A stretch of DNA of 64,000 nucleotides from Lotus japonicus. Its lineage: Eukaryota > Streptophyta > Magnoliopsida > Fabales > Fabaceae. Location of the stretch: positions 58,270,195 through 58,334,194 of the forward strand of contig NC_080046.1 of the NCBI RefSeq assembly GCF_012489685.1, written 5' to 3'. The notes beneath the pieces are model-generated. The model had not been told where the DNA came from, ran no database searches, and saw only the letters and a list, made by a program, of their open reading frames with translations. Position numbers and translations under genes: made by a program. Shown one piece after another: positions 42 to 60,671 of this stretch (position 1 is the first letter of the stretch; each line of letters begins with the position of its first letter).

Positions 42-188
42 GTCACCGAGAGTTAGCTCAAGTGGTAAGAGTTAGGGGACATAAGGGTTGGGGAGGGGAA
101 GGTCCAAGGTTCGAATCCTGGAAGGGAAATTTGAAGGGATTTTCTAACTTACTAACAACTAACCACTAACATTTGCCTATAAAAAAAA
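42..188 (+). mobile_element. tRNA-derived SINE, copy 1
   Basis: A short retroposon with an A-box-like segment (TTAGCTCAAGTGG) and a B box (GGTTCGAATCC) about 60 bases apart, ending in a run of A. It is flanked by near-perfect 16-bp target-site duplications at 26-41 and 189-204 (ACTATATGNCTATAAT). The tRNA-like head and A tail fit a tRNA-derived SINE moved by a LINE. Two more copies lie at 13871-14017 and 20571-20708. It is not a functional tRNA because the cloverleaf is disrupted between the two boxes. Confidence 0.85.
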
Positions 189-419
189 ACTATATGACTA
201 TAATACAAAGAATCATGTACGTTATATACTTACGGTTGTTCTTCCTTCCCTGAACCTATTAAACTCAGATGATGCATGAAAAAATATAATATACAACCCA
301 CCTAAACACCCAAAAATATTTTACATGTTAGAATTAACATATTAACACATAAATTATTTATAATACCGAATGTAAATGAATATATAGTACTCTATAAACC
401 ATACCTTATAGAGTTATAT

Positions 420-6318: not shown

Positions 6319-7974
<1,656 letters not shown>

Positions 7975-8455
7975 GGCACTGTATTGCTAGAGTCCTATAT
8001 CTATCAATTTGCTATATAGGGTTGGATTTTATTTTGTTTTTGATCCTTTTAATGTTGTAAAACACTGATGAAGTGCTTGAACATTGCTATCTTTGATTTT
8101 GTGTATGCGATAAGATTACAGGTCATAAGTTGTTCCACTTTCGCAGAGAAACTACAGAGTGTAGCTTCTCGAAAGTGCAATAAGCTTCAAAGTTTCAAAA
8201 TTTTCAGTAAGATATTGTGATTTCTAAACAAGAGTGCTTTTTTTAAAAAAATTATGTATATTCATTGTGTCTCACAAGGAAAATAGTAGACTAATGATAT
8301 GCAAGAAAAATAGTGATAGTGTGATACAATTATGCAATATAACATACTGAAACTACATATGAATGATCCCCTAAAGCAGGTAGTAGTCTAACGAATTAAA
8401 CTGAATTGAATATATCTCATCAACATAAATGGCATCAAATCTAACTAACTTGGAC
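7975..8455. other. BBE-like gene 3' flank
   Basis: Probable 3' UTR and intergenic DNA between two convergent genes. The sequence is closely matched at 17626-18054 behind the truncated BBE copy, so it belongs to the duplicated segment. The copy in the second segment carries about 365 additional bases (about 18055-18415) that are missing here. No gene was seen. Confidence 0.7.
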
Positions 8456-9960
8456 TCAATAAGTCTTCATGAAGTGCTTCCTCTGCAAAAGCATCAGATT
8501 ATCCATACCTAACATTTCTATCTCCGGAAAAAATGGTGACAAAGGTTCATCTATTGCTTTTCTAAAGCATTCCTCATCAGCAACATTTTCTAAGTCTAGC
8601 AACTTCATAATATTGCCATTCCCCACTTCACCAAAATTGTTTAAGGCATCACATATCCTCTCCCTGCATGCTTGAGATATGGGAGTATACGATGCGAGTG
8701 ATATTGCCATTCCCTGCATGCTTGCAGTCATTTGCATCCTCACAGACACCAGCTTTCATTTCTTTTGTTTCTTCTTTTCACCCACAGAAGTATCTGCTTT
8801 ACCCCAATGAAATTTCTTCCTCTTTTTGTGAGCCCTATCACTCTTGGCCTGTAAATTGTCCATTTCTCCACACAATAAATTTGCAAGCTGCATTTTAATT
8901 TTTCTACCATCAGAAGATAAATTTGAAATACATTCAACTGTATCATGAATTCTTTTTCTCATCCTATCAAGCTCAATAATTAATCTGCAAGTACAGAAAC
9001 AAAAGATTTTTTCCCTAATGCCATTGCAGTTGCCTCTTCTAGTTGGAATCACAATATGAAAGTTTATTATTAACATTAAAGTCAACTTATTATCCTCTAT
9101 CTCAATATTGGATTCAAGATACCGTCTCATTTTTTTTCTTTTGAGATGTGTCATGATGATTAGAGGAAACAAAAATGACAAACCTTACTCCAACTTCATA
9201 AATAATAGCAAATGGTTCAGCAATGGAAACAAACCTTAGTAAAGTCGCTTTAAGTGGTGTAATTCATGCTCTAATATGCGGCGACAATGTGCTTCATGCT
9301 CAGCCTTCATCGTTTCACGCTTAACCTTTTCCCTCGCGTACTCCGCACGTATCTTTTAAAGCTGTAGACTGTCTCCCAAAAGCAGTAATTTGTCTTCAGC
9401 AAGCTTCTTCTGCTCCTCTGCCTGCTGTTTTTCCATATCGGCGGTCTTTTTATCAAGCTCAGACCTCTCCTGAGCTTTCTTAATCTTCGACTCAGCATTT
9501 ATTTTCTCCACTAACAGCTTCTTCTTTTCAGCTTCAAACCTTTTGGTTGCCTCTTTAGTCTTTGACAGCTCAAAAGCCAGCTTCATTTTTCTTTCATTAA
9601 CTTGTTTCTCCAAGTGAACTTGTCGAAGTTCGACTTTCGCAATCTGCTTCTCTACCTCAGCAGCTATTTTCTTCGGAGCTTCCAATAACTTCCTTGCTTC
9701 CGCCGCAGCATTCTTTCTCTCGTCCACAGCAGTCTTCCTCTCAGAATCAGCTACTATCCTTTCTTCCTCCACGTGTTCTTTTTTCAAGCGATTGACTTCC
9801 TTTTTAGTATCAGATATACCAGCTTTCAGAACTTCCACATCCCCATTTCCTTCACGAGCACCAGCACCACATTTCTGCTGCAGTGCAGAAATCTCAGATT
9901 TTAAGGCAGAAACTTCATTCTCTAAAGTAGAAAAAGCATTGGATATTTCCAGCTTTCCTT
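8456..9960 (-). pseudogene. 3' part of coiled-coil gene A, decayed
   Basis: The minus-strand continuation of the coiled-coil gene, parallel to the better-preserved copy at 18472-19997. It is damaged in at least four ways. The frame is already lost at about 9970, where one base is missing. A CAA-to-TAA nonsense change lies at 9356-9358. About 28 bases encoding the segment after HHLKRG are deleted near 9254. One base is missing near 8760, inside the GEKK-rich region. What remains encodes an extremely charged, heptad-rich coil (for example AKVELRQVHLEKQV, FELSKTKEATKRFEAEKKKL) and a C-terminal block with RMRKRIHDTVECISNLSSDG and RKAIDEPLSPFFPEIEM. Confidence 0.85.
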
Positions 9961-12900
9961 CTATCTCAATTTTCTCTGTGCTTGTTCTTCTTGAATATCT
10001 GCAGACAATACATTACCAAATGATTGGGGAAACATATTCAATAAATTTTGAGCTTCCAAGTCATAGCTCATGATTGATCACCTTTCTTGAGCTTCTTATT
10101 CTCAGATTCCAGATTTTCAATTCCCTTTTCAAGGATCTTGACAGCTTGGCGGAGAGCATTCCGCCCCACTGCAACCTTCTCACACTTCTTCTTCAACTGA
10201 TCACAAAATTCAAATAAAAAATGTCAAGTTGATGAGTTGTTATCAAACTGAAACTAGCACTAATGCAAAACACGTGCACGGGGCATCAAGAAAAGAAATT
10301 TTATCTACCGAGCTACCGCACACGGTAGCCCAACCTAGTCACCGAGTAACCATCCACAGTTACTGGCTAAATCACCTAAATACACTTCAAGCCCAATAAG
10401 CATAAGCCTTAATGGTTTGAAATTTTGAATGAATGTGTATCTACCGACCTACCCCCGACGGTAGCACGGCCTAGTCACCGAGTTACGACCCACGGTAATT
10501 CGGCTTAATCAACGAGACACACTACAAGCTCAATAAACACGTGCAGCATACGTGAACTTAAGAGACGTGTAACCCCGAGAATAAATATCCGCATGTAACC
10601 CCATGATCATTAATTAAGCATTATGTCATTTAAGGACCTAATAAATCACTTTAAATATAATTCCTAAACAACAAAAAGTCCAAGAGACATCCTTATTTCT
10701 ACAAAATGACTAAGATAACAGGATTAATGTATCTTCACTCTAGGCATTGTGATTGAACAAAAATGAAAGCATACCTCATCGCATTTGCTGCAGCAATTTG
10801 CAGGCTCAGGAATCACAGCCTTCTCTGGAGCAATTTTCTTTGCAGCTTCCAATAACTTCCTTGCTTCCGCCGCAGCCTTCTTTCTCTCGTCCACAGCAGT
10901 CTTCCTCTCGGAATCAGCTACTATCTTTTCTTTCTCCACAAGTTCTTTTTTCAAGGTATTGACTTCCTTTTCAGTATCAGATATACCGGCTTTCAGAACT
11001 TCCACATCCCCATTTCCTTCACGAGAACCAGCACCACATTTCTGCTGCAGTGCAGCAATCTCAGATTTTAAGGCAGAAACTTCATTCTCTAAAGCAGCAA
11101 AAGCATTGGATATTTCCAGCTTTTCCTCTATCGCAACTTTTCTCTGTGCCTGTTCTTCTAAAATATCTGCAGACAATACATTACAAAATGATTGGGGCAA
11201 CATATTCAAATAATTTTGAGCTTCCAAGTCATGGCTCATGATGGATCACCTTTTTTGAGCTTCGTACTCTCAGATTTTAAGGCAGAAACTTCATTCTCCA
11301 AAGCAGCAAAAGCATTGGATATTTCCAGCTTTCCCTCTATCTCAATTTTTCTCTGTGCTTGTTCTTCTTGAATATCTGCAGACAATACATTACCAAATGA
11401 TTGGGGCAACATATTCAATAAATTTTGAGCTTCCAAGTCATAGCTCATGATTGATCACCTTTCTTGAGCTTCTTATTCTCAGATTCCAGATTTTCAATTC
11501 CCTTTTCAAGGATCTTGACAGCTTGGCGAAGAGCATTCCGCCCCTCTACCACCTTCTCACACTTCTTCTTCAACTGATCACAAAATTTTCCCTGTGCTTG
11601 TTCTTCTAGAATATCTGCAGACAATACATTACCGAATGATTGGGGCAACATATTCAAATAACTTTGAGCTTCCAAGTCATGGCTCATGATTGATCACCTT
11701 GTTTGAGCTTCTTATTCTCAGATTTTAAGGCAGAAACTTCATTCTCTAAAGCAGCAAAAGCATTGGATATTTCCAGCTTTCCCTCCATCGCAACTTTTCT
11801 CTGGGCTTGTTCCTCGAGAATATCTGCAGACAATACATTACAAAATGATTGGGGCAACATATTCAAATAATTTTGAGCTTCCAAGTCATGGCTCATGATT
11901 GATCACCTTTTTTTAGCTTCTTATTCTCAGATTTTAAGGCAGAAACTTCATTCTCTAAAGCAGCAAAAGCATTGGATATTTCCAGCTTTCCCTCTATCTC
12001 AACTTTTCTCTGTGCGTGTTCTTCTTGAATATCTGCAGACAATACATTACCAAATGATTGGGGCAACATATTCAATAAATTTTGAGCTTCCAAGTCATAG
12101 CTCATGATTACCTTTCTTGAGCTTCTTATTCTCAGATTCCAGATTTTCAATTCCCTTTTCAAGGATCTTGACAGCTTGGCGAAGAGCATTCCGCCCCTCT
12201 ACCACCTTCTCACACTTCTTCTTCAACCGATCACAAAATTTTCCCTGTGCTTGTTCTTCTAGAATATCTGCAGACAATACATTACCTAATGATTGGGGCA
12301 ACATATTCAAATAACTTTGAGCTTCCAAGTCATGGCTCATGATTGATGACCTTGTTTGAGCTTCTTATTCTCAGATTTTAAGGCAGAAACTTCATTCTCT
12401 AAAGCAGCAAAAGCATTGGATATTTCCAGCTTTCCCTCCATCGCAACTTTTCTCTGTGCTTGTTCCTCGAGAATATCTGCAGACAATACATTACAAAATG
12501 ATTGGGGCAACATATTCAAATAATTTTGAGCTTCCAAGTCATGGCTCATGATTGATCACCTTTTTTTAGCTTCTTATTCTCAGATTTTAAGGCAGAAACT
12601 TCATTCTCTAAAGCAGCAAAAGCATTGGATTTTTCCAGCTTTCCCTCTATCTCAATTTTTCTCTGTGCTTGCTCTTCTTGAATATCTGCAGACAATACAT
12701 TACCAAATGATTTGGGCAACATATTCAATAAATTTGGAGCTTCCAAGTCATAGCTCATGATTGATCACCTTTTTTGAGCTTCTTATTCTCAGATTCCAGA
12801 TTTTCAATTCTCTTTTCAAGGATCTTGACAGCTTGGCGAAGAGCATTCCGCCCCTCTACCACCTTCTCACACTTCTTCAACTGATCACAAATTTTTCCCT

Positions 12901-14143
12901 GTGCTTGTTCTTCTAGAATATCTGCAGACAATACATTACCGAATTATTGTGGCAACATATTCAAATAACTTTGAGCTTCCAAGTCACGGCTCATGATTGA
13001 TCACCTTGTTTGAGCTTCTTATTCTCAGATATTAAGGCAGAAACTTCATTCTCTAAAGCAGCAAAAGTATTGGATATTTCCAGCTTTCCCTCTATCGCAA
13101 CTTTTCTCTGTGCTTGTTCTTCTTGAATATCTGCAGACAATACATTACCAAATGATTGGGGAAACATACTCAATAAATTTTAAGCTTCGAAGTCATGGTT
13201 CATGATTGATCACCTTTTTTGAGCTTCTTATTCTCAGATTCCAGATTTTCAATTCCTTTTTCAAGGATCTTGACAGCTTGGCGAAGAGCATTCCGACCCA
13301 CTACAACCTGCTCACACTTCTTCTTCAACTGATCACAAAATTCAAATAAAAAATGTGAAGTTGGTGAGTTGTAACTTGTAATCAAACTGAAACTAGCACT
13401 AATCCAAAACACATGCACAGGGGAAATGGGGATTGGGGAATCAAGAAAATAAATTGTATCTACCGAGCTACCGCACATGGTAAGCCAAACCTAGTCACCG
13501 AGTAACCGTCCACGGTTACTTGGCTAAATCACCTAAATACACTTCAAGCCCAATAAGCACAAGGCTCAATGGTTTGAATGACTGTGTATCTACCGAGCTA
13601 CCGTCGGCGGTAGCCCAGCCTAGTCACCGAGTTACAACCCACGATAATTCGGCTTAATCAACGAGACACACCCCAAGCTCAATAAACAAGTGCCGCATAT
13701 ATACGTGAACTTAAGAGACGTGTAACCCCACATTAAATAGCCACATGTAACCCCATGATCATTAACTAATCATTAAGTCATTTAAGGACCTAATAAATCA
13801 CTTTAAATATAACTCCTAAACAACAAAAAGTCCAAGAGGCATCCTTATCCTACAAAATGACTAAGACAGCTAAAAGTTTCAAGGGTTAGTTCAAGTGGTA
13901 AGAGCTAGGGGACATAAGGGTTGAGTGAGATGAAGAATGAAGGGTACAGGGTTCGAACCCTGAAGATTGACTAATTTACTAACATTATTAACAACTAACA
14001 TTTGTCCATAAAAAAATACTGAGACAACAAGATTAATGTATCTTCAGTCTAGGCGTTGTGATTGAACAAAAATGAAAGCTTACCTCCTCGCATTTGCTGC
14101 AGCAATTTGCTGGCTCAGGAATCACAGCCTTCTCTGAAGCCAT
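9961..14143 (-). CDS. Coiled-coil protein A built from a tandem exon array (spliced model, 646 aa)
   Basis: My spliced model, 5' to 3' on the minus strand: 14143-14084, 13328-13214, 13130-13005, 12921-12769, 12685-12560, 12476-12351, 12267-12112, 12032-11907, 11823-11698, 11614-11459, 11375-11250, 11166-10775, 10196-10082, 9998-9961. All joins keep one frame and the sum is 1941 nt, ending at a TAG at 9961-9963 caused by a one-base loss in exon 14. The N-terminus (MASEKAVIPEPANCCSKCEE) matches copy B. The rest is charged heptad-type coil made of repeated 42-residue and 51-52-residue modules, each ending KKLKK or KKLKQ. Short introns are 83 bp (one is 79), all GT...AG. I do not know the function. 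The module KKKCEKV..GRNALRQAVKILEKGIE recalls plant MEE22/EMB1611-type coiled-coil proteins, but that is from memory only. Expression is unknown and the locus may be a pseudogene. Confidence 0.65.
10300..10510. repeat. Paired-hairpin repeat in intron, copy 2
   Basis: It contains the palindrome GCTACCG-CACA-CGGTAGC (10312-10329), then GTAAC...GTTAC, then CTACC...GGTAG and GTTAC...GGTAAT, separated by CTAGTCACCGAGT and linked by an AAGCCCAATAAGCATAAG spacer. The same order occurs at 13455-13665 and 20300-20500, always inside the first intron of a coiled-coil gene copy. Confidence 0.8.
10775..11166 (-). other. Chimeric exon: array end fused to a second exon 1
   Basis: This 392-nt exon starts as a normal array exon and runs through EIAALQQKCGAGSREGNG and ARKLLEAAKKIA. 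It then changes, at about 10838, into the exon-1 sequence of another copy (PEKAVIPEPANCCSKCDE) and ends at a GTATGC donor. The former start codon of that copy has become an isoleucine codon inside AAAATTGCTCCAGAG. The join is in frame and its phase fits exon 13. Confidence 0.85.
11167..13213 (-). repeat. Tandem exon-intron array, 209/236-bp units in a 653-bp higher-order repeat
   Basis: Exon starts fall at 13130, 12921, 12685, 12476, 12267, 12032, 11823, 11614, 11375 and 11166. Steps are 209 bp for 126-nt exons (one 153-nt exon also occurs) and 235-239 bp for longer exons. The units follow a triplet order, long exon then IQEE-type then ILEE-type, repeated three times with starts 12921, 12267 and 11614 (steps 654 and 653 bp). 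Introns also follow the triplet: each of the three positions has its own characteristic variant. This points to amplification of a three-unit block after single-unit duplication. Confidence 0.9.
13455..13665. repeat. Paired-hairpin repeat in intron, copy 1
   Basis: It includes perfect palindromes GTAACCG-TCCA-CGGTTAC (13502-13519) and GCTACCG-TCGG-CGGTAGC (13597-13614), in the same order and spacing as the copies at 10300 and 20300. It lies in intron 1 of coiled-coil gene A. Confidence 0.8.
13871..14017 (+). mobile_element. tRNA-derived SINE, copy 2
   Basis: Same family as 42-188: GTTAGTTCAAGTGGTAAGAG, then GGGTTCGAACCCT, then a TTTGTCCATAAAAAAA end. Imperfect 11-bp target duplications ACTAAGACAGC / ACTGAGACAAC lie at 13860-13870 and 14018-14028. 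The corresponding positions in the duplicate introns at about 10707 and 20850 are empty, so the insertion came after those duplications. Confidence 0.85.
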
Positions 14144-16161: not shown

Positions 16162-17625
<1,464 letters not shown>

Positions 17626-18471
17626 GGCACTGTATTGCTAGAGTCCTATATCTATCAATTTGCTGCTATATAGGGTTGGATTTTATTTTGTTTTCGGTCC
17701 TTTTAATGTTGTAAAACAATGATGAAGTGCTTGAACATTGCTATCTTTGATTTTGTGTATGCGATAAGATTAAAGGTCATAAGTTGTTCCACTTTCGCGG
17801 AGAAACTACAGAGTGTAGCTTCTCGAAAGTGCAATACGCTTCAAAGTTTCAAAAATTTCAGTAAGATGTTGTGATTTCTAAACAAAAGTGCTTTTTTTAA
17901 ACAAATTATGTATATTCATTGTGTCTCACGAGGAAAATAGTAGACTAAGGTTATGCGAGAAATATAGTGATGCAATTATGCAATATAACATACTGAAACT
18001 ACATAGGAATGATCCCCTAAAGCAGGTAGTAGTCTAACGAATTAAACTGAATACAGAACATTGAAAATTTCCAAACAGAACAATTCAGATAACAGTATTA
18101 CCTTTTTGGAAAACTAAACTACCCTTGAAAATAGCATGTTGATAGATCAAGCAAAGCCAAACAAATAAATATAGAAACTATATAAATTATCCCAGGAATT
18201 AGTTGTGTGCAATTTCAGAGAGCAACAGGAGCCATGTTTAAAAGCTCTCAACTAAGTGAAACCTAACTAAGGTCTAAGGCCACCTAATTTCCCATAATAG
18301 AGTTTTCAATGACTAAGGTCAGTAACAGAATGAAAGTATTAATTACATCTTAAAGTATTAATTTGAGATGTGTGCTAATCTGCTAGAAGGAACTGAAAAG
18401 GCATCAATTTTTCTCTCATTGGAATATATCTCAACATCAATGGCACCAAATAATAAGTCTTCAAGAAGTGC
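17626..18471. other. Flank between BBE pseudogene and coiled-coil gene B
   Basis: Matches the BBE 3' flank up to about 18054, then has about 365 bases not present in the first segment (18055-18415). After that, similarity resumes at the 3' end of the coiled-coil gene. No gene was seen. Confidence 0.65.
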
Positions 18472-20972
18472 TTACTCTGCCAAAAGCATCAGATTATCCA
18501 TATCTAACATTTCTATCTCCGGAAGAAATGGCGACAAAGGCTCATCTATTGCTTTTCTAAAGCATTCCTCATCAGCAACATTTTCTAAGTGTAGCAACTT
18601 CATAATATTGCCATTCACCACATCACCAAAATTATTTAATGCATCAAATATCCTCTCCCCGCATGCTTGAGATATGGGAGTATATGATGCGGGAAAGATA
18701 TAGTGTTTGCAGCCATTTGCATCCTCACAGACTCCAGCTTTCATCTCCTTTGTTTCCTTCTTTTCACCCACAGAAGTATCTTTACCCCAATGAGATTTCT
18801 TCCTCTTCTTGTGAGCCCTATCACTCTTGGCGTGTAAATTATCCATTTCTCCATACAATAAATTTGCAAGCTGCATTGTAATTTTTCTACCATCAGAAGA
18901 TAAATTTATAATACATTCAACTGCATCATGAATTCTTTTTCTCATCCTATCATGCTCAATAATTGATCTGCCAATAACAGAAACAAAAGATTTTTTTCCC
19001 TAATGCCATTGCAGTTGCCTCTTCTAGTATTATTAAAATTAAAGACAACTTATTATCCTCTATCTCAATATTGGATTCAAGATACCGTCTCATTTTTTTA
19101 ATTCTTTTGAGATGTTTCATGATGATTAGAGGAAACAAAAGATGACAAACCGTACTCCAACTTCATAAATGATAGCAAGAAGTTCAGCAATGAAACAAAC
19201 CTTAGTGAAGTCAAGTTGATCAAGAAATTGAATGTAACCACGCTTTAAGTGGTGTAATTCATGCTCTAATATGCGGCGACGATGTGCTTCATGCTCAGCC
19301 TTCATCCTTTCACGCTTAAGCTTTTCCCTCGCGTACTCCGCACGTATCTTTTGAAGCTGTAGACTGTCTGCCAAAAGCTGTAATTTATCTTCAGCAAGCT
19401 TCTTCTGCTCCTCTGCCTTATGTTTTTCCATATCGGCCGTCTTTCTTTCAACCTCAGACCTCTCCTGAGCTTTTTCCATCTTTGACTCAGCATTTCTTTT
19501 CTCCACTAACAGCTTCTTCTTTTCAGCTTTAAACCATTTGGTTGCCTCTTTAGTCTTTGACAGCTCAAAAGCCAGCTTCATTTTTCTTTCATTAACTTGT
19601 TGCTCCAAGTGAACTTGTCGAAGTTCGACTTTCGCAATCTGCTTCTCTATCTCAGCAGCTATTTTCTTCGGAGCTTCCAATAACTTCCTTGCTTCCGCCG
19701 CAGCCTTCTTTCTCTCGTCCACAGAAGTCTTCCTCTCGGAATCAGCTACTATCTTTTCTTTCTCCACAAGTTCTTTTTTCAAGCTATTGGCTTCCTTTTC
19801 AGTATCAGATATACCAGGGGCTTTCAGAACTTCCACATCCCCATTTCCTTCACGAGCACCAGCACCACATTTCTGCTGCAGTGCAGCAATCTCAGATTTT
19901 AAGGCAGAAACTTCATTCTCTAAAGCAGCAAAAGCATTGGATATTTCCAGCTTTCCCTCTATCTCAACTTTTCTCTGTGCTTGTTCTTCTTGAATATCTG
20001 CAGACAATACATTACCAAAGGATTGGGGCAACATATTCAATAAATTTTGAGCTTCCAAGTCATGGCTCATGATTGATCACCTTTTTTGAGCTTCTCATTC
20101 TCAGATTTCAGATTTTCAATTCCCTTTTCAAGGAACTTGACAGCTTGGCGAAGAGCATTCCGCCCCACTACAACCTTCTCACACTTCTTCTTCAACTGAT
20201 CACAACATTCAAATAAAAAATGTCAAGTTGATGAGTTGTAATCAAACTGAAACTAGCACTAATGCAAAACACATGCACGGGGAATCAAGAAAAGAAATTG
20301 TATTTACCAAACTACCGCACACGGTAGCCGAACCTAGTCACCGAGTAACCATCCACGGTTACCTGGCTAATACACTTCAAGCCCAATAAGCATAAGGCTT
20401 AATGGTTTGACTGACTGTGTACGATCTACTGAGCTACCGCCGACGGTAGCCCGGCATAGTCACCGAATTACAACCCACGTTAATTCGGCTTAATCAACGA
20501 GACACACTCCAAGCTCAATAAACACGCGTCGCATACATATATGAACTTAAGAGACATGTAACCCCTACATTTTTTTTGATATGCAAATGTTAATTGTTAG
20601 TAAATTAGTCCTCCTTAGTGTTCGAACCCTAGACCCTTCACCCTTCATCCCACCCAACTCTTATGTCCCAAGCTCTTACCACTTGAGCTATCCTTCAGGG
20701 ACAATAAATAGCCCTAGATTAAATAGCCGTATGTAACTCCATGATCATTAACTAATCATTATGTCATTTAAGGACCTAATTAATAACTTTAAATATAATT
20801 CCTAAACAACTAAAAGTCCAAGAGGCATCCTTACTCCTACAAAATGACTAAGATAACAGGATTAATGTATCTTCACTCTAGGCATTGTGATTAAACAAAA
20901 ATGAAAGCATACCTCATGGCATTTGCTGCAGCCATTTGCAGGCTCAGGAATCACAGCCTCCTCTGGAGCCAT
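18472..20972 (-). CDS. Coiled-coil protein B (three clear exons plus a C-terminal exon)
   Basis: The simpler paralogue of the gene at 9961-14143. Clear exons on the minus strand are 20972-20913 (MAPEEAVIPEPANGCSKCHE), 20195-20081 and 19997-19201. The intron between the last two is 83 bp (19998-20080) and is the same intron that is multiplied in copy A. Exons 1-3 give 324 codons, nearly all charged coiled coil rich in E, K, Q and A. The 5' Cys pair (CSKC) is conserved in both copies. A further exon, about 18967-18472, encodes RMRKRIHDAVECI and ends in LPEIEMLDMDNLMLLAE. Its acceptor (TTATTGGCAG) does not continue the frame of the donor after LDQLDFTK at 19201, so an intermediate exon is missing from my model or the gene is broken there. 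Function unknown; possibly an MEE22-like plant coiled-coil protein (from memory). Confidence 0.65.
20300..20500. repeat. Paired-hairpin repeat in intron, copy 3
   Basis: Contains CTACCG-CACA-CGGTAG, GTAACC-ATCCAC-GGTTAC and GCTACCG-CCGA-CGGTAGC in the order seen at 10300 and 13455, within intron 1 of coiled-coil gene B. Confidence 0.75.
20571..20708 (-). mobile_element. tRNA-derived SINE, copy 3
   Basis: Inverted orientation relative to copies 1 and 2. On the minus strand it shows TAGCTCAAGTGGTAAGAGC, then GGGTTCGAACACT and an ATTTGCATATCAAAAAAAA end. An imperfect duplication (CCCCTACATT / GCCCTAGATT) flanks it. The matching positions near 10580 and 13730 are empty. Confidence 0.85.
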
Positions 20973-21640
20973 TTTTTGTTCTCAAGCTGGTTTTTCAAAG
21001 TGATGAAACTCTATGTCAATGTGCTTCACAAAAAAATGCAACAAGTGGTGAGGGTGAAAAAAAGTAAATGTCAAGTTCATGTCACAGGTGAGGAAATGTG
21101 AAAAAAAAGGTGTCACCTTTGAGACACTTTTGTGAAACAAGTGGTGAGGGTGACTGGAGACTCCGGTGATCGGCGAGTAACAGCGACGTTGATGGTTAAG
21201 GGGGTGAACGGCAACGGCAGAGTAGAGTAGTCGTCACTGTTGAAGCAGTGAAGTCGAAGCTCGAAATGGAGAAAACGAAGGTGGTGTGAAGGTGAAGGAA
21301 CGGCAATGGCAGCGGAAATGGCGTCGTCACCGTCGAAGTGAACACTGATGACAAGGAGGAAAGATGGTGGTGTGGTCGTGACTCGTGAGTGTTGAACACT
21401 AATGACAAGCAGTCCAACTACGTTGTGAACTGAATTGGCAAGTGAGTAGTTTGAGTTTAATTTATTAAAATAATTGAATTTAAAATATATTGTAATATTT
21501 GACTTTAAAATATTTTTAAAAGTATTTTTTTTTATAGAATATAGGTGTCCTAAAGTTATAGACTTATAGGAATGGGGATGCCGAGAAGTTGAGCACGGGA
21601 TAAAGGTTGATTTACAACATGTTTGAAACTTGAGCTATAG
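20973..21640. other. Upstream region of coiled-coil gene B
   Basis: Diverged copy of 14144-14681 with an additional stretch around 21230-21290 (GTGAAGTCGAAGCTCGAAAT). Presumed leader and promoter on the minus strand. No separate gene is supported. Confidence 0.55.
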
Positions 21641-35200: not shown

Positions 35201-35409
35201 GATTGATGATTAATTCCAACACTTGCTTAAACATAGGCAAAAAAATTAGACTTTTTGAAACGAAGAATATAAATTAAACCAACTTACAAAGGCATACTAA
35301 TTCGACAGTTAACCCTTGAATAAATAATTATAAAAAATCTTATGAACTCGATCATAACCAAAACTTTATTCAAATATTTTTATTAATCCGTTCTATCAAC
35401 TACTTTGAG

Positions 35410-35927
35410 TTAACATTTAAAACAACAACATGCCGGTGGTAACCCTGGTACTACAGGAGGAAAAGTTTGACCACAAGCGCTGCGAGTATATCCTGCAGCA
35501 ATACAATCTTGTGTGCATTTTGCGGCTGTTCTGCAAGGGCCTAAGCAAGTGTTACAGTCTTCTGCTTCTGATACTTGACCTACAAAAAAATGTATACAAT
35601 TATCTTCTCATATGATTCAATTATTTTGTACATAAAATTTAAAGTTAATTATAATATGGTGAATTTCCATAGTATCTACCAATATACTATGAAAAAAATA
35701 AAAATATAGTATTGTGAATTCTTAAAAATTGTCCAAATCTCACATACATAAAACTCGTGGATTAACTTTGAAGTAATATTATAATTTCATTATTTAATTT
35801 ACATAATGATGATATATTTAAATAGAACGTATGTTATGAAAAACACTTTATTTTTTTTACCTGAAGATAGAACTAAAACAAGGAACAAAATCCCGAGGAG
35901 AAAACGTTGATCAGCTAGAAAAGACAT
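35410..35927 (-). CDS. Defensin-like cysteine-rich secreted peptide, two exons
   Basis: Exon 1 at 35927-35861 encodes a signal peptide (MSFLADQRFLLGILFLVLVL). A 281-bp intron follows and exon 2 is 35579-35410. Joining gives 237 nt, 78 aa. The two-exon layout, with the signal peptide on exon 1 and the split after its end, is typical of plant defensin-like (DEFL/LCR/NCR-type) genes. The mature part has ten cysteines at 31, 34, 38, 44, 48, 58, 73, 74, 75 and 78, in the pattern C-2-C-3-C-5-C-3-C-9-C-14-CCC-2-C. The triple Cys near the end is unusual for a classical eight-Cys defensin, so the subfamily is open. The product is expected outside the cell; its role (defence, pollen or symbiosis) is unknown. 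A TATA-like TATATAAT lies about 65 bases upstream. Confidence 0.85.
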
Positions 35928-35988
35928 TTTGTGAGATTTCACTTTTTAACTATTTTGTTTTGTGAAATAAGTGGGGAACATTATTTCA

Positions 35989-35996
35989 TTATATAC
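35989..35996 (-). promoter_or_regulatory. Putative TATA box of the defensin-like gene
   Basis: The minus strand reads TATATAAT about 65 bases before the ATG at 35927. The surroundings are AT-rich, so the call is weak. Confidence 0.35.
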
Positions 35997-36059
35997 TATT
36001 CATTTCACAAAAAGTAAGAAAATAGTTCTAAATTAGCGAACATATAAATTAATGCAATA

Positions 36060-36540
36060 ATAATTAAAATAATTAATTTTTTTAATTTATAATACACAGT
36101 AAAACTATTATATAATATAATTTATGATAATATTTTATATGGTATAAATATTACTAAATGATATAATATAATATATTATTTAATAATATATTATTTAATA
36201 ATATACTATAGCATAATATACTATAATATTGTATAACATATTATATAATATAATATAGTATATAATAATGTAGTATAATATAATATTATAATATAATATG
36301 TTATAGCATATTATATTATATAGTATTATAATATATTCGATTATATAATATAATATATTTATATTAAAATATGTTATAATATATTATATTATATAGTATT
36401 ATATCATATATTATATAATACATTATTTTATAATAAATTATAATATAATATATTTTATAATAATGTATTATAGTAATATAATATATTATAATATAATATA
36501 ATATAATATATTATAACATATTATATTATATAGTTTAATA
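36060..36540. repeat. Almost pure A/T spacer (TATAAT-type)
   Basis: About 480 bases of nearly uninterrupted A and T made of ATATAATA and TATTATAT variants, with many local palindromes. It separates the arms of the inverted repeat and has replaced most of exon 1 of the right-hand copy. Confidence 0.9.
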
Positions 36541-36985
36541 ATATCTTCAGGTAAGAAAAATAGTGTTTTTCATATCATACGTTCTATTTTAAATATATCA
36601 TCAACATGTAAATTGAAGAATGAAATTTATTATCTTACTTCAGACTCAGTCCATGAGTTTTATGTAAGTGAGATTTGTGTTAACTTTAAAGAATTCTCAA
36701 TACTATACTGTATTTTTATTTTTTTCATAGTATCTTCGTAGATACTATGGAAATTCACCATAGTGTAATTACCTTTAATTTATATGTACAAAATTATTAA
36801 ATAATGAGCAGATAGTTGTAAACAATTTTTTTTAGGTCCAATAACATAAGTAGAAGGAAACATTTGCTTAGGCCTTGCATAACACTCGCATACTGCAGCC
36901 AATATTTTATTTCTAAATGATATATTCGAAACGCTTGTGGTCGAACTTATTATATAATATCAGGGTTACCACGACCATGTTGTTA
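36541..36985 (+). pseudogene. Inverted dead copy of the defensin-like gene
   Basis: The copy retains the last eight bases of exon 1 (ATCTTCAG) with its donor, an intron-like stretch and a degraded exon 2 from about 36835. Exon 2 has early in-frame stops (after the segment matching SEAED, and again after CLGL). Several cysteine codons are still recognisable, for example TGCTTAGGCC and GCTTGTGGTC. No signal peptide and no product. Confidence 0.85.
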
Positions 36986-37344
36986 TTTTAAATGATAACT
37001 TAAAGTAGTTGATAGAATTGATTAATAAAAATATTTGAATAAAGTTTTGGTTATGATCGAGTTAATAAATTTTTTTAAAATTTGCTTATTTAAGGGTTAA
37101 CTGTCAAATTGGTATGCCTTTGTAAGTTAGTTTAATTTTCATTCGTCATCGAAAAAAGCTTAATTATTGTCCCTATGTTTAAGCAAGTGTTGGAATTAGT
37201 CCTCAATTGAGGATGGAGGTATGGCAATGTTGCCTGATGGTAGACCATAGATAACATTTGCACACATGTAATTTTTTAATTATTTCTTATTTTAAATTTG
37301 TATAATTGTTTTTTGGTACATTGCATAAAAAGAAAAAAGGCTAA

Positions 37345-45936: not shown

Positions 45937-46473
45937 AGGCTTAATTGCAACTTTGGTCTCCAACGTTTACCAATACCACGATTTTGGTCCCCCGCCTAAT
46001 TTAATTACATGGATGATCCCCGACGTTATAGGCCGTGTGCAACGTTAGTCCTACCGTTTATTTCTTAATGGAGAAGGCTTACGTGGACGTCCAGTTGGAG
46101 AGAGAAAGGAGGTATGAGGAGAGAGGGAAGCACGTGAGTATCACGTGACCCTTATCTGAACCCATTATACCCAAACCTCTGACCTCCATGGAACGAAGAA
46201 GGTAACGCGATTTAGATCCCTAGGGTTTCAGATTTAGGTATAATGGGTTCATATAAGGTTCACGTGATACTCACGTGCTCCCCTCTCTCCTCAGATCTCC
46301 TTTTTCTCTCTCCAACTAGACTTTCAAGTAAGCCTCCTCCATTAAGAAATAAACGATAGGACTAACGTTGCACGCAGCCTACAACGTCGGGGACCATCCA
46401 TGTAATTAAATTAGGTGGAGGACCAAAATTGTGGCATTGGTAAACGTCGGGGACCAAAGTTGTAATTAAGCCT
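45937..46473. mobile_element. Foldback element with about 215-bp inverted ends
   Basis: The left end AGGCTTAATTGCAACTTTGG and the right end CCAAAGTTGTAATTAAGCCT continue as near-perfect inverted arms (about 45937-46155 and 46255-46473). The centre holds only about 100 bases. TTTATTT flanks both ends, a possible target duplication of low complexity. The arms include CACGTGA motifs. No coding sequence. Confidence 0.85.
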
Positions 46474-50240: not shown

Positions 50241-50400
50241 GTTTGATCATTACATTTTGTCACCAAAACATAGTTCTCATCTGTTGACAATAAGGACTAT
50301 GGTTGCTTAGTCTTGAGACTTTATGCTTTTTGATGTATATATTCTATCATATCATTAGATAACTTCTGCACCATAAAATTTAGCTTATTACTCATCTACT

Positions 50401-50858
50401 TGTCTGCAGCATCCAGTGTACATCCTATTCACCTCGAGTACTTCAACTTCTTCGGTCATATTATTGCTTTAGATTTGATGAATAAGGTGCAAGTGGGTAT
50501 TGTTTTTTATCGTGTGTTTTTCAAGCAATTGACAGGATATTGTATTACTTTAGCAGATATACGGGATGCAGATCCTTACCTGTATAGAGGCTGCAAGCAA
50601 ATATTAGAGATGAATGCTGATTTGGTTGATTCAGATGCATTAGGACGGACATCTCTTAGGGAGGTGGAGGAATTAGGACACAGGAAAGCTATTGAGCTTT
50701 TCCCTGGTGGGGAAAGACTTGTGGTGAATAGTATGAACAAAGAGAAGTTTGTTAATCTTCTTATATATAATCAATATGTAACATCCATATCTAAGCAGGT
50801 ATCGCATTTTACTAAGGGTTTTGCTGATATTCTTTCCAACTCAAATCCACAAGACTAG
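50401..50858 (+). pseudogene. HECT-domain fragment of a UPL5-like ubiquitin ligase (inverted copy)
   Basis: It begins after an acceptor-like TTGTCTGCAG and encodes the central HECT domain: HLEYFNFFGHIIALDLMNKV, then YCITLADIRDADPYLYRGCK, then REVEELGHRKAIELFPGG and SKQVSHFTKGFADILSNS. These match the UPL5 type of plant HECT E3 as I know it. The catalytic cysteine lobe is absent. It mirrors the minus-strand copy starting at 51421 but has no upstream exons. Confidence 0.8.
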
Positions 50859-50911
50859 TATCCTACATACCTCCCAAAACCAAGATATCTGAGGATTAAG
50901 ATCTTCAAGGT

Positions 50912-53640
50912 CTAAACTTTGAAAGAACTCTTGTCATGTGGCTTTGAGTTGGAAAGAATATCAGCAAAATCCTTAGTAAAATGTGATACCTGCTCAGATA
51001 TGGATGTTACAAATTGATTATGTACAAGAAGATTAACAAACATCTCCATATTCTTACTATTCACTGCGTGTCTTTCCCCACCAGGGAAAAGTTCGATAAC
51101 TTTCATGTGTCCTAATTCCTCCACCTCTCTAAGAAATGTCAGTTCTAATGCATCTGAATCAACAAAATCAACATCCATCTCTAATATTTGCTTGCAGCCT
51201 CTATACAGGATAGGTTCTGCATCTCGTATATCTTCTAAAGTAATATAATATACAACCAATTGCTTGAAAAACACACGATAAAAAACAATACCCACTTGCA
51301 CTTTATTCATCAAAGCTAAAGCGATAATACAACTAGAGAAGTTGATATACTCAAGGTGCAGATGATTTACTTTGGATGTTGTAGACAGATAGATGAATAT
51401 TAACTTAAACTTCATGTGCATAAGCTATCTGATGATACAAGATATAAATCAAAACGCATCAAAACTCAAGACTAACTAAGAACCATAGACATTAATGTTA
51501 ACAAATGAGAACTCAGGTTTAGTGACAAATGCTAATAATGATGATACATGTTACACAATGTAGAGTTTATAAATATCGATGAATAAAATCAACAATTTAG
51601 TTTTCTTTAAAAAAAATACAAGAACAAGCATAACAAATCATGGCTGTACGAGAAGCCTACACCCTCAATTTTTTCACTAATGCTTACCACTGCATTTCAC
51701 ACCACTTTAGTGGTGGATCCATTCCATAAACATGGCAAACACACATTAACCGTGGAACCTATAAACATTAACAGATAAGAAGCCACTGCATCATTCTTTA
51801 AAGAGGATCGTAGTATTTACGTTGAATACACATGCACAAGCATTAATTTTGTCATTAAATTAGTCAATAAATTAAAGATTAACTTCTATATTATATAACA
51901 ATGCTCTAACATGTTACCTTACCCTTACCAAAAAGTAATGTACATACATAATAGATTCACAGAAGCATATATACCATATGAAACATGCTAATTTTGGTAA
52001 TTGGTGATAAATCTCCCTATTTCGTTACTGACTTAAAGGAAGCAACACAAAGGCAATGTATCAAAATTTTATGAACTTATGGTAAAATAATAACAACACG
52101 AGAAACTTATACTTCAAACAAAAAGTATTTTAACCTTCCTTTTATCAAATACGTCACTAAATAGATGAAATCTATGAATTCTCAAACATATATAATATTC
52201 TCAAAAGTAATGAAGATTTAAATAATCATAACTTCAATAAACAAATGAGAGACTAATTATGATCAGAATCAGATAGTGGTTGGAGAAGATAGCACAAATA
52301 CTAATTAGAAAGATTCCTCAATTTAAGATTGAGGGTTTGGTATGTATATATCCTAAGACCAAATATACCTGACCTCAACTAAAATATTTAGGCTGCTGTG
52401 TTTGTAAAATAATTGCTTTCTATTTGACGTGGACAAACCAAGAATTTTACTTTCAAGTTAATCATATTGGAAAGAAAGATTTACCATTCTAATGAGAGTA
52501 AATGGATTTTTACAATTCCAATCATATAATTGCTAGTATATGTTTGGATACAAGTTAAGTGCAATGTAAAAATACTTTCATCACAATTCATATGAAGAGT
52601 TACATTTTTTCATTTTTTTTCAAAATAAGTTCGTTTGTACCGGTGACAACTGATAACTTTTACCACCAAGTTCCCTGCCCATCAGGTGCAGCCTAGCACT
52701 TCTTTCCATATTTTTATACTGTCTTTAAGCCCATAACTACACATGTCATTCATGAAGTAGGATTAGGGAAAAATCTTATATATTCAGATTTGGGGATTAA
52801 ACTCACCAGGATTATGGAAAAATATTATGTCGTCATTTGGGCATGCCAGGAAAGAGCATTTAGAGGATTAAATATTTCTTGACACACCAAATAAACCACA
52901 CCCTCTCCTGCCCCTTTCTCATGCAAAAAATTTACAGAAAGACCATATCCCAGAGCATCAGGCCTTTCATGCACTATTTTACGGGAAGATTCAGCTAGTA
53001 GATTAGACCTGTCAATAAATATGTCATGCATTTCCTCATCTCTATTCTCTTCACTAGGAAATGAAATCACTGCAAATGGCCTTCTAGCTACGGATTTTAG
53101 CGCACTTTTGTGCTCCAGAATCCACTCATGGCCCTCATCACCTCTCTTTGTGTACAAAATAATTAGATGTGCCTCCATCTGTGTATAAAAAATTCCCTAA
53201 ACATCTCTTCAGCACCATCTATTAGCTTAAAGAGTTCAGATATATACTTCAATATGGTAAGGTAAGGAACCCACTCCACAATCCATTGTTTCACGTTAAT
53301 CCAAGTCATCCTCAATGTTCTGAAAACCTTCTTCAATTTTGTATAATAGTTTACTGTACATAAGACGAAGGTGGTAAATCTCATTTTCAAGCGATGGTTC
53401 CTCATCATCTTCCTCATTATTCCCAAACTAGGTCTCCCAAGATTGCAGCCCCTTAACCTTGATTGCATCCCATAAATAAGTAAGAATGCAATTAGATTCT
53501 AAAAATTGTACATAAACGATAAATTAGGGATCTTGATATCAAAACAAATATCCAAATCCCCTAACACCAAATTCACACTCTCACCAACACAATTCAAAAC
53601 CCCTTTAATAATAACCTTCCAATTAGGTTTTATATCACTG
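50912..53640 (-). pseudogene. UPL5-like HECT ubiquitin ligase pseudogene
   Basis: Minus-strand remains in order. From 53460 there is a region with NEIYHLRLMYSKLLYKIEEG, readable only by switching frame. At 53178-52825 HEWILEHKSALK and FIDRSNLLAESSRKIV lead into the start of the HECT domain, and a one-base loss disrupts the NALF.ACPNDD segment at about 52850. An intron-like gap follows, then 51421-50912 with YITLEDIRDAEPILYRGCK and FLREVEELGHMKVIELFPGG. The piece at 50872-50912 preserves the PQISWFWE motif in another frame. The catalytic cysteine lobe is missing. UPL5 is a cytosolic or nuclear E3 ligase; nothing functional remains here. Confidence 0.8.
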
Positions 53641-54093: not shown

Positions 54094-54601
54094 TGTTAGA
54101 GATAACTAGGCATGATATTCTCTTTATTTATATTTACTTTATTTTGTAATATGTCTCAGAATATTCTTAGCATATTCTGTACCTTTATTATTATAAATAA
54201 TATTGTCTACCTCACACACAATTTGTGGTGAGAGTTAACCAATCTTACATGGTATCAGGTTTTAGGTTCTAAATCCTAGCCTCCAAACCTTGTGCCGCCA
54301 CCGTTCTTTCTCTCTTTCATTTTCTGATCTAATTGTTGCTGCCGCCATTAATTTTTTGTGCCGCCGGTGTATTCTTATGTGCTTGTGCAGCCGTTGAATT
54401 TTTTCGGTCCCATTGACTTCCGTATTGCTGCGTTCTCATTTTCCGCGTGCCTCTGTCATCGTACTTTGTGCCAGCCGCCACAAAGTCTCTTGCTGCACCC
54501 GCACACTTGTCTGCTACTGGAATCCTCCTTGCCGTCATCACTTTTTGCTCCCTGTGTAGTCGCCATTCCCATATTGAAGTGCTACTACAAGATTATTATT
54601 A

Positions 54602-54877
54602 CTCCCTCCGTCCCTAATTATAAGCTAACATTGAGACTTTTTTTGTGTCACTAAATATAAACTAACATTGCAAAAGTTAATATTTCTTTCCATATTCACC
54701 CTTGCATTTATTGGTAGTGGAGCACCATCATTAGTAGTACAATGATGAAAAAGTGTTATCATAAATAGGGGTAAACATAGAAAGTTCTACATTTTTTTTA
54801 AAACCAATGCATCAATTAAGGCTTTCTTAATAAGTGTGATTTTTACAACTTTAGCTTATAATTAGGGACGGAGGGAG
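54602..54877. mobile_element. Stowaway MITE
   Basis: A 276-bp element with inverted ends CTCCCTCCGTCCCTAATTAT and ATAATTAGGGACGGAGGGAG and TA target duplications (54600-54601 and 54878-54879), the hallmark of Stowaway/mariner MITEs. It is nested between the 5' LTR and the coding region of the copia element. Confidence 0.97.
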
Positions 54878-55039
54878 TATATTACTTTTGTTTTTGGGAT
54901 TTTCGTCAGTTTTGATTTTCTTTTGCAGCACCATTGATCTTTGACTAAGGATACTTTTGAGTCAAAGTTGAATTAATCTTTTTGGCAGAATTGATATTTA
55001 CCCGGCTAATTGACTTTTCTAACCAGTTGCTTTTTTCAT

Positions 55040-58000: not shown

Positions 58001-59232
58001 GATGTCAAAATGCTTTCCTCCATGGTCATCTAACTGAAACTGTTTATATGCAACAACCTCCTGGGTTTGTTGATCCTCGTTTTCCGACTCATGTGTGTCG
58101 TTTGAACAAAGCCCTCTACGGCCTCAAACAAGCGCCTCGTGCTTGGTTTCAGCGCTTGAGCTCGTTTCTCACGAGCAATGGTTTTATGTGCAGTCGGGCT
58201 GATCCATCCTTGTTCTTCTTCTATAAAGGACGTATCACTCTCTATCTTCTTGTGTATGTGGATGACATCATTCTTACTGGTAGTGATACCTCTCTTTTGA
58301 CTCAGTTTATTGCCCGTCTCAATGCTGAGTTCGCCATTAAATATTTGGGTAAGCTTGGCTACTTCCTTGGTCTTGAGATCACTTATACTGCTGATGGCTT
58401 GTTCTTGGGACAGGCTAAATATGCTCATGATTTACTTTCCCGTGCTATGATGCTTGAGGCCAGTCATGTTTCGACACCCTTGGCTGCTGGTTCTCATCTT
58501 GTCAGCTCTGGTGATGCTTACTCAGATCCTACGCACTACCGCTCTTTGGTTGGGGCCTTGCAGTATTTGACCATTACTCGTCCTGACTTATCATATGCTG
58601 TTAATACTGTGAGTCAGTTCCTACAGGCTCCGACTGTGGATCATTTTCAGGCTGTCAAACGAATTCTTCGTTATGTCTGTGGCACACAACATTTCGGTCT
58701 TACTTTTCGTCGTACCTCTTCCCCCGCTATTATTGGTTATAGTGATGCTGATTGGGCTCGATGCACGGACACTCGCCGCTCTACTTATGGCTACGCCATT
58801 TTTCTTGGTGATAATCTGTTGTCTTGGAGTGCCAAGAAACAGCCTACTGTTGCTCGCTCTAGTTGTGAATCTGAGTATCGAGCTATGGCTAATACTGCTT
58901 CTGAGCTAGTTTGGTTGCTTAATCTTCTTCATGAGCTTCGTGTTAGGTTATCGACGACTCCTCTTCTTCTCAGTGACAACCAAAGCGCTTTGTTTATGGC
59001 TCAGAATCCTGTTGCTCATAAGCATGCCAAACACATTGACTTGGACTGTCACTTTGTTCGTGAGCTGGTTGCTTCTGGTCGATTAGATGTTCGCCATGTG
59101 CCTACTTCTCTCCAGCTTGCTGATATTTTCACTAAGGCGTTGCCTCGTCCATTGTTTGAACTTTTTAGATCCAAGCTTCGAGTTGGTCTCAATCCAACGC
59201 TAAGCTTGAGGGGGAGTGTTAGAGATAACTAG
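55040..59232 (+). pseudogene. Copia gag-pol polyprotein with a single frameshift
   Basis: Likely start is the ATG at 55040. Domains in order: gag with a zinc knuckle CQICREQGHYADKC; aspartic protease around WYMDTGATSHMT; GAG-pre-integrase with LWHSRLGHVNFD; integrase with Asp in IHCDLWGP, Asp in QSDNGTEF and Glu in NGRAERKHR; a Pro/Ser/Ala-rich linker; reverse transcriptase with SKWVFRTKFKSDDTVERLKA and YVDDIILTG; RNase H with SSCESEYRAMA and KHIDLDCHFV. The only visible defect is a one-base loss near 58005, just before the LHGHLTETVYM segment, which moves the second half (57982-59232) into another frame. All catalytic motifs seem intact. Confidence 0.93.
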
Positions 59233-59581
59233 GCATAATATCCTATAGGATATTCTCTTTATTTATTATTTACTTTATTTTGTAATATGCCTCAGAATAT
59301 TCTTAGCATATTCTGTACCTTTATTATTATAAATAATATTGTCTACCTCACACACAATTTGTGGTGAGAGTTAACCAATCTTACAGAATACTAGATAAAA
59401 CCAATTAATTAGAGATACAATATAAAATATGAATGGAAGACCTATAGGAAGAGGAGAGGAAACAAAAACAATTATCTTCACTCTAACACAGTAACACTAA
59501 CTCTAAGAGCTAGACTTTGTGAGTGTAACTAAGTGAGACCCCTGCACTTTGGAGAGAACAAGATCATATTTAGGCTAAATC

Positions 59582-60136: not shown

Positions 60137-60671
60137 CATTACTATACTAATACTTAAAAATGTGAATACATAATAATGATTGTTATCTTAACATAAGACG
60201 ATAGAATTACCGACAATGTACAATACAGTTAGTAGATAGCTAAACTTCTTAAATATTTAATTTAATGTTCAAACCATCAGTAATGTGTATGGAGAGTAAT
60301 TTATCACTTAATGTAATTTCCGATTCGGGAGATTAATCTCATGATTATCGGTCGTGTAGATACGAAAGCAAAGAAGGAAAGAGAAACATCACCTCACATG
60401 AAACAAAACTGAAATAAAAGGGAAAGCCCAACGGGGATGGGTTGTGTAAGAGAACCCAGCTCATCACAAAGATCAAATCATTCAAAAACCACCCCTCTTC
60501 CCAAAATACCCTCACAACCCTCACATAATTACACAAAAAATCCCGCCCTTCAAATTCTCCACACCACACCATTATACCCGTTCCTTCCCTCTGAAACCTC
60601 CTCATTCATCACCATCCCCAAATCAAAACCCTAATTTCCATTTTCCTCCCCAAACCAATTTTCCCGAGAAA

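What the first reader, a model, noticed from the sequence alone, without database searches (positions are those of the whole stretch)
11167..13213. Coiled-coil gene expanded by tandem amplification of a symmetric exon with its 83-bp intron
Directly visible: ten consecutive exon starts spaced 209 or 235-239 bp, every exon in phase 1-1 and a multiple of three, every intron 83 bp (one 79) with GT and AG kept. Joining them gives an uninterrupted frame that would lengthen the coil from one module to ten. The units form a 653-bp triplet repeated three times, so growth went through at least two levels. The paralogue at 18472-20972 has the single ancestral intron, which gives the starting state. A gene locus behaving like a higher-order satellite while keeping splice sites and frame is unusual.
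Basis: partly seen in the sequence, partly recalled or inferred. Interest (0 to 1): 0.9.

Follow-up and report, generated by a model that had tools for sequence, protein, structure and literature searches.

The report
Repeated exon-intron array in Lotus gene
In the legume Lotus japonicus, a duplicated and partly broken gene for a long rod-like protein has copied one short exon with its intron into a nested satellite-like array; the repeats keep the reading frame, but nothing found here shows that the longer protein is made or needed.

Summary
On the minus strand, 13213-11167 holds ten tandem copies of one GT-AG intron (nine of 83 bp, one of 79) around nine exons of 126, 153 or 156 bp. The spliced frame is open from the ATG at 14143 for 646 codons, and units form a ~655-bp higher-order repeat. 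The source is Lotus japonicus. The unexpanded neighbour shows the founding site: a 10-bp direct repeat in exons 2 and 3 exactly 209 bp apart, the monomer length. The interpretation needs cutting back. Phase symmetry is automatic when a unit spans one intron. Exons vary as much as introns. Absence of stops alone is not significant (P=0.16), though the array half has fewer lesions than the downstream half (p=0.03 counting all six). The array runs into a broken second exon 3, and both window copies lack a C-terminal part found in Lotus only on chromosome C1. Such exon-intron arrays are known (human NBPF). Unexpectedly, relatives lengthened the same coil with other units: 24 aa in Lotus C1, 28 in cotton, 53 in lupins.

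The parts
14084..14143 (-). Exon 1 of locus A (MASEKAVIPEPANCCSKCEE), 60 nt
   Evidence: aligned to the paralogue exon 1 (20972-20913)
13214..13328 (-). Exon 2 of locus A, 115 nt, ends in phase 1
   Evidence: 3 private changes against its two other copies
11167..13213 (-). Array: ten copies of one 79-83-bp GT-AG intron with nine exons of 126/153/156 bp between them; unit types h,g,a,b,g,a,b,g,a,b
   Evidence: tandem repeat finder
12112..12768 (-). Complete triplet 1 (units a-b-g), 657 bp
   Evidence: 1.5% divergence to triplet 2
11459..12111 (-). Complete triplet 2 (units a-b-g), 653 bp (its first intron is 79 bp)
10775..11166 (-). Head of exon 3 fused in frame to a second exon 1 (joint at about 10823-10840, KKIA/PEKAV)
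   Evidence: 10823-11276 matches exon 3 (9656-10108) and 10574-10837 matches the exon 1 region of locus B (20712-20975)
10082..10196 (-). Second copy of exon 2 in locus A (unexpanded)
9999..10081 (-). Eleventh copy of the 83-bp intron, single-copy setting
9235..9998 (-). Second exon 3, broken: 1-bp deletion near its start (first stop TAG 9963-9961), a TAA later in the original frame, 29-bp deletion at its end
8456..9234 (-). 3' remnant of locus A (intron and exon 4 with three further frame-changing length differences against locus B: 1, 10 and 1 bp)
18472..20972 (-). Paralogue (locus B): unexpanded, one 83-bp intron; NCBI 'protein CROWDED NUCLEI 2-like' of 456 aa
19890..20108 (-). Founding site as kept in locus B: AAATCTGAGA in exon 2 (from 20108) and in exon 3 (from 19899), 209 bp apart
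6832..8406 (+). Berberine-bridge-like oxidase gene part, duplicated together with the coil gene (copy at 16479-18052, 96%)
   Evidence: the name is recalled from the ORF, no family search was made

Best explanation
Locus A is one half of a Lotus japonicus ~10-kb tandem duplication: a C-terminally truncated copy of a coiled-coil gene next to an unexpanded sister. Read from sequence: intron 2 and its exon edges were tandemly duplicated between short direct repeats in exon 2 and exon 3 (a 209-bp unit giving a 42-aa module). A second joint, between the head of exon 3 and the end of intron 1, made a 239-bp unit whose exon carries about 13 nt of former intron 1. These were copied onward as an a-b-g triplet of about 655 bp. 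A further duplication fused the amplified 5' half in frame to a second exon 1. Inferred: the copying went by unequal exchange or replication slippage between the growing repeats, as in satellites, and largely neutrally, because the gene was a redundant truncated copy; the frame survived mainly because the founding units happened to be multiples of three and the growth is young. If spliced, the message would encode 407 extra, probably helical residues (roughly 60 nm at 0.15 nm per residue, recalled figure), then stop in the broken second exon 3 about 725 nt before the next exon junction (if the donor used in locus B is used), which predicts nonsense-mediated decay.
For: Duplication 6832-8406/16479-18052 and 8458-10576/18452-20565. 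AAATCTGAGA 209 bp apart in the sister; of 10 direct repeats of 9 bp or more found in its exons 2-3, it is the longest of the four spanning the intron. Joint sequences. Triplets 1.5% apart; same-type units 3.0%, other pairs 8.4%. Exon and intron change rates similar, 0.185 and 0.169 per site; codon positions 6/5/9. Downstream breaks. The part of Sesbania P0010 beyond about residue 833 matches in Lotus only on C1, among 26 listed matches (42 of 304 candidates were scored). AlphaFold2 of the sister gives an unbroken helix 16-102 across the intron site, pLDDT mostly 79-87 there, model mean 67, pTM 0.28.
Against: The array half has no frameshift or stop in 38 counted changes. The downstream half has six disabling differences against locus B (three in exon 3, three in exon 4) in about 38: Fisher p = 0.24, 0.12, 0.057 or 0.028 when 3, 4, 5 or 6 are counted, so the full count favours some constraint on the array frame or its purging by exchange between units. 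Three joints all kept frame (chance about 1/27) and the one exonic indel seen within the array is 3 bp. Nonsynonymous/synonymous ratios are below 1 (0.53 a/b units, 0.42 within a, 0.00 within b on one difference, 0.77 within g), though few and not independent. Raw reads and RNA were not seen.
Confidence: 0.7

Rival explanations
1. A working gene: the array is spliced, and the extended coil (possibly of variable length, since skipping any array exon keeps the frame) is made and selected.
For: Open frame of 646 codons into the fourteenth exon; GT and AG kept in 10 of 10 array introns; three in-frame joints; no lesion in the array half against six downstream (p=0.028); the same family lengthened its coil elsewhere.
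Against: No constraint of exons over introns; broken downstream half and predicted decay of the message; no database protein carrying the array in two searches (only candidates of 0.55-1.75 times the query length that shared most words were scored).
Confidence: 0.18
2. Assembly artefact: unit number inflated or collapsed.
For: Tandem repeats are a known source of assembly error (PMC6868369, search listing and start of abstract only); raw reads not available here.
Against: The published Gifu assembly used about 100x PacBio reads averaging 8 kb (PMC7508351, passages), longer than the 2-kb array; most units carry private differences. That this genome is that assembly is inferred from size (553.7 Mb, against 554 Mb) and from the species name of P0001.
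Confidence: 0.06
3. A transposable-element or non-coding satellite that only resembles exons.
For: Higher-order structure like a satellite.
Against: Units are homologous to a gene with relatives in other plants, among them lupins and Sesbania. Of 5 DNA matches listed in the genome, four are in this window and one is a fragment on C3 (such counts are lower bounds).
Confidence: 0.02

Closest known systems
Human NBPF genes (Olduvai/DUF1220 triplets, 3mer higher-order repeats)
   Same: Tandem exon-plus-intron monomers inside a gene, arranged as triplets; triplet copies (about 1.6% in NBPF20) far closer than monomers within one (about 18%) (PMC9584774, passages read)
   Different: NBPF monomers are about 1.6 kb with two exons, with 19 canonical triplets in NBPF20; expressed (recalled). 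Here 205-239 bp, one intron, two complete and two incomplete triplets, 1.5% against about 8%, expression unknown, plant, gene broken downstream
LPA kringle IV type 2 repeat
   Same: Coding tandem repeat whose unit contains exons and introns (recalled); [quoted passage not shown]
   Different: Much larger unit, folded domain, polymorphic; polymorphism here unknown
Internal tandem repeats in segmentally duplicated human genes
   Same: Recently duplicated paralogues change structure by internal repeats, half of them within coding exons (PMC2812944, abstract read)
   Different: There ascribed to minisatellites (section heading); here a repeat of intron plus exon edges
Arabidopsis EMB1611/MEE22 family (AT2G34780)
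   Same: Resemblance of exon 2 and of the C-terminal part of the C1/Sesbania proteins, recalled only
   Different: Not compared; no Arabidopsis sequence was retrieved. The window copies lack the C-terminal part
Protein CROWDED NUCLEI 2-like (NCBI name of P0001)
   Same: Long E/K-rich helix
   Different: Name given by a database source; no family model above its cut-off

Membership tests
Intragenic exon-intron higher-order repeat (NBPF kind) | Monomers contain exon and intron and lie head to tail inside one gene | tested here: met
   (exon and intron read from splice signals and homology, not from RNA)
Intragenic exon-intron higher-order repeat (NBPF kind) | Multi-monomer copies differ less from each other than the monomers inside one copy | tested here: met
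   1.5% between two triplets; 3.0% same type against 8.4% other pairs; contrast smaller than in NBPF
[quoted passage not shown]
   Two complete triplets plus two incomplete ones; so it works like, but is not, a canonical array
Intragenic exon-intron higher-order repeat (NBPF kind) | Array transcribed and spliced | not testable with these tools
   No RNA data; no matching array protein
Functional protein-coding gene | Open frame over the array | tested here: met
   646 codons
Functional protein-coding gene | Intact downstream coding part | tested here: not met
   Exon 3: 1-bp deletion, TAA, 29-bp deletion; exon 4: length differences of 1, 10 and 1 bp against locus B
Functional protein-coding gene | Purifying selection on the array exons | tested here: inconclusive
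   Exons 0.185 against introns 0.169 changes per site, 6/5/9 by codon position: no constraint. Lesion contrast p=0.24 to 0.028 by how many lesions are counted: some constraint possible
EMB1611/MEE22 family | Homology to AT2G34780 and its C-terminal region | not tested
   Recalled resemblance; gene listed in PMC5717279 (passages), its protein sequence was not retrieved
CROWDED NUCLEI (nuclear lamina) proteins | Homology to the family | tested here: inconclusive
   Only the database name; no Pfam family at E 0.001, only TSC22 below its cut-off at E 0.007

The most novel reading that the evidence does not exclude
A coiled-coil family whose rod length is free to change: at least four coil lengthenings that differ in unit and so look independent (42/52-aa exon modules and a 24-aa array in two Lotus genes, 28-aa in cotton, 53-aa in lupins, besides long duplications in Sesbania). 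In the window the lengthening uses whole exons, so skipping any of nine symmetric exons would give a ladder of in-frame rod lengths from one gene, with unit number varying between accessions.
Probability: 0.14. Interest if true: 0.7.

Novelty: new member of a known kind. Interest (0 to 1): 0.42.

Why it matters
It is a small plant example, with its starting state kept next door, of how an exon with its intron becomes a nested satellite-like array. The founding microhomology can be read off the unexpanded sister (a 10-bp repeat exactly one monomer apart), so the first step rests on sequence. It also shows how far frame and splice-site conservation can go while exons change as fast as introns, a caution for reading such arrays as functional. 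The repeated lengthening of the same coil in relatives raises a testable question: does rod length matter in this family?

Tried and rejected
Rejected or cut back: (1) phase symmetry as evidence of selection, since it follows from one intron per unit. (2) Frame openness as clear evidence of selection: 38 parsimony changes, about 1.8 nonsense changes expected, P(0)=0.16. The lesion contrast with the downstream half gives p=0.24 to 0.028. I first counted only 3-4 downstream lesions; on checking, exon 4 shows three, so all six are now told, and I moved the working-gene rival from 0.15 to 0.18, the best explanation from 0.72 to 0.70 and the novel case from 0.13 to 0.14. In that test the downstream count is half of the locus A/B difference, not a polarised count, and the array count includes changes on the locus B branch. 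(3) tRNA or RNA-family explanations: no tRNA and no Rfam match at gathering scores, whole window each. (4) Family naming by Pfam: nothing at E 0.001 for the 324-aa query and nothing above cut-off for P0010, P0001, P0012 and P0013. (5) BLASTP self-comparison gave no off-diagonal hits even for the array, a fault of the method; replaced by an identity scan with shuffles (P0001-P0015, the C1 exon and the predicted array protein, 17 in all; 7 of 17 show internal repeats, 0 of 20 shuffles for each).

Led nowhere: paper searches for plant precedents: among the rows listed (20 of 26, 4, 6 and 1) I saw none of the same kind by title or start of abstract; that is not proof that none is in print. The third protein search found no match. 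The structure model was used only for helix continuity; no fold search was made.

The tree used 14 sequences; P0009, P0014 and the array protein were left out. Alignment A1 held 11 of the 15 proteins found. The unit trees have weak inner support.
Full report
WHERE IT IS. The window lies in a 553.7-Mb genome (C6:58270195-58334194). Protein P0001, NCBI 'protein CROWDED NUCLEI 2-like [Lotus japonicus]', is identical over the whole 324-aa prediction from the neighbouring copy, so the source is Lotus japonicus. The size fits the published Gifu assembly (554 Mb, PMC7508351, passages). C6 is 67,907,570 bases against 67,910,847 for the record holding P0001, so probably two versions of one chromosome.

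OBSERVATION. Confirmed in nearly every number. Ten introns of 83 bp (one 79) share GT...TGTCTGCAG ends; nine exons of 126, 153 or 156 bp lie between them. The joined frame runs from the ATG at 14143 through 13 exons (1903 nt) and stops about 12 codons into the next, at TAG 9963-9961, 646 aa in all. Tandem Repeats Finder reports the region with periods 209, 445 and 448. A self-shift scan gives its highest identities at 1310, 209 and 653.

SURROUNDINGS. A stretch with an oxidase-like gene (6832-8406) and the coil gene (8458 on) is repeated at 16479-18052 (96%) and 18452-20565 (90%). The second oxidase copy is matched only from about residue 171 on and in two frames. Locus B has one 83-bp intron and is unexpanded. 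Locus A holds the array and then a second exon 1, exon 2, intron and exon 3.

HOW IT GREW. In locus B the 10-mer AAATCTGAGA occurs near the end of exon 2 (20108) and in exon 3 (19899), 209 bp apart. Of ten direct repeats of 9 bp or more in exons 2-3 (copies at least 60 bp apart), four span the intron and this is the longest. A tandem duplication between them gives exactly the 209-bp unit with a 126-bp exon. The 153/156-bp exon joins the head of exon 3 (GAGAAAA) to the end of intron 1 and exon 2 (TTTTGTGATCAG|TTG), so about 13 nt of former intron became coding. A third joint at about 10823-10840 fuses exon 3 to a second exon 1 in frame. The units then multiplied as a triplet: units 3-5 and 6-8 differ by 1.5%. 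The first unit is an a/b hybrid and its intron is the most diverged, like the edges of satellite arrays (recalled comparison).

WHAT SELECTION SHOWS. Because each unit contains one intron, equal phases on both sides are unavoidable. Only length matters, and three joints kept frame (about 1/27 by chance). For nine a/b-type units (seven of the array's ten and two outside it), parsimony changes per site are 0.169 (14/83) in introns and 0.185 (20/108) in exons; codon positions 1, 2 and 3 have 6, 5 and 9 changes. Ratios of nonsynonymous to synonymous difference are 0.53 for all a/b units, 0.42 within a, 0.00 within b (one difference), 0.77 within g, 0.34 among the three exon 2 copies, and 0.81 for the second exon 3 against locus B. 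Pairwise sums are not independent and counts are small. The array half has 38 changes and no stop or shift; for nonsense alone about 1.8 are expected, P(0)=0.16. The downstream half has about 38 changes on its lineage and six disabling differences against locus B: in exon 3 a 1-bp deletion, a TAA and a 29-bp deletion; in exon 4 differences of 1, 10 and 1 bp. Which lineage changed was not tested formally; locus B and Sesbania P0010 read on where locus A does not. Counting 3, 4, 5 or 6 lesions gives Fisher p = 0.24, 0.12, 0.057 and 0.028. So exon and intron rates show no constraint, while the full lesion count hints at some; gene conversion between units could also purge lesions. The question stays open.

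THE GENE IS A TRUNCATED COPY. The stop codon of locus B (TAA) aligns with GAA in locus A, and Sesbania P0010 continues there, so locus B is cut short too. With P0010 as query, the part beyond about residue 833 matches in Lotus only on C1:6415559-6417632, out of 26 listed matches (42 of 304 candidates were scored). C1 thus holds the one copy found with the C-terminal part; C3:5708099-5708410 is a fragment with stops. On the tree of 14 proteins P0001 groups with Sesbania P0010 (support 1.00) and C1 with P0008 (0.999).

PREDICTED PRODUCT. For locus B, AlphaFold2 gives a helix over residues 16-102, which crosses the intron site after residue 58 (pLDDT mostly 79-87 there; model mean 67, pTM 0.28). 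Modules of 42 aa are exactly six heptads, so they would extend a coil without shifting its register; modules of 51-52 aa would shift it (inference). If spliced, the message stops in the second exon 3 about 725 nt before a junction, predicting nonsense-mediated decay (inference from the general rule).

A PATTERN IN THE FAMILY. An identity scan (30 aa, 60% or more) of 17 proteins finds internal repeats in 7: the array protein; the C1 exon (24 aa; 8.1 copies of 72 bp); P0013 cotton (28 aa); P0011 and P0012 lupins (53 aa, probably one event); P0010 Sesbania (115 and 128 aa, identical over 30 aa, so recent or an annotation fault); P0014 (95 aa). The other 10 show none, and no shuffle does. Periods and positions differ, so coil lengthening probably recurred. 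In C1 the repeat lies inside one open frame; gene structures of the rest were not examined.

KNOWN OR NEW. NBPF genes carry triplet higher-order repeats of monomers with two exons each, about 1.6% between triplets and 18% between monomers (PMC9584774, passages). Internal repeats in duplicated paralogues are described for human genes (PMC2812944, abstract). This is therefore a new, small, plant member of a known kind. It falls short of the canonical NBPF definition (three copies in tandem) and its expression is unknown. In four paper searches I saw no plant case of the same kind among the rows listed, in a library without most subscription journals.

Noticed in passing
L023 (G000:C1:6413500-6422500), reverse-complement nt 1696-2276: The only Lotus relative found with the C-terminal part has its own in-exon array: about 8 copies of a 72-bp (24-aa) coil repeat; its exon 2/3 intron looks like phase 1 too, but about 0.6 kb long (by eye).
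   Followed up: partly
P0013 (cotton), residues about 241-476: A 28-aa (four-heptad) tandem repeat in the same family, apparently independent of the Lotus arrays.
   Followed up: partly
window 6832-8406 and 16479-18052: Oxidase-like gene duplicated with the coil gene; in the second copy the first ~170 residues find no match and the frame shifts near its end.
   Followed up: partly
window 49-191, 13871-14025, 20576-20715: Three copies of a SINE-like element (A- and B-box-like words by eye); the two in intron 1 of loci A and B lie in opposite orientation, so they look like separate insertions.
   Followed up: partly
window 10302-10539, 13448-13688: Intron 1 of the coil gene contains a ~100-bp sequence (CTACCGAGCTACCG...) twice in each of the two locus A copies.
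   Followed up: no
window 54094-59385: Copia-like retrotransposon (name recalled from its frames) with ~160-bp matching ends and reading frames of 1007 and 416 aa in different frames.
   Followed up: no
window 35202-37207, 45937-46473, 50256-51529: Stretches that match their own reverse complement at 75-86%: large palindromic elements.
   Followed up: no
window 60450-62983: Beta-tubulin-like gene (recognised by eye in the frames).
   Followed up: no
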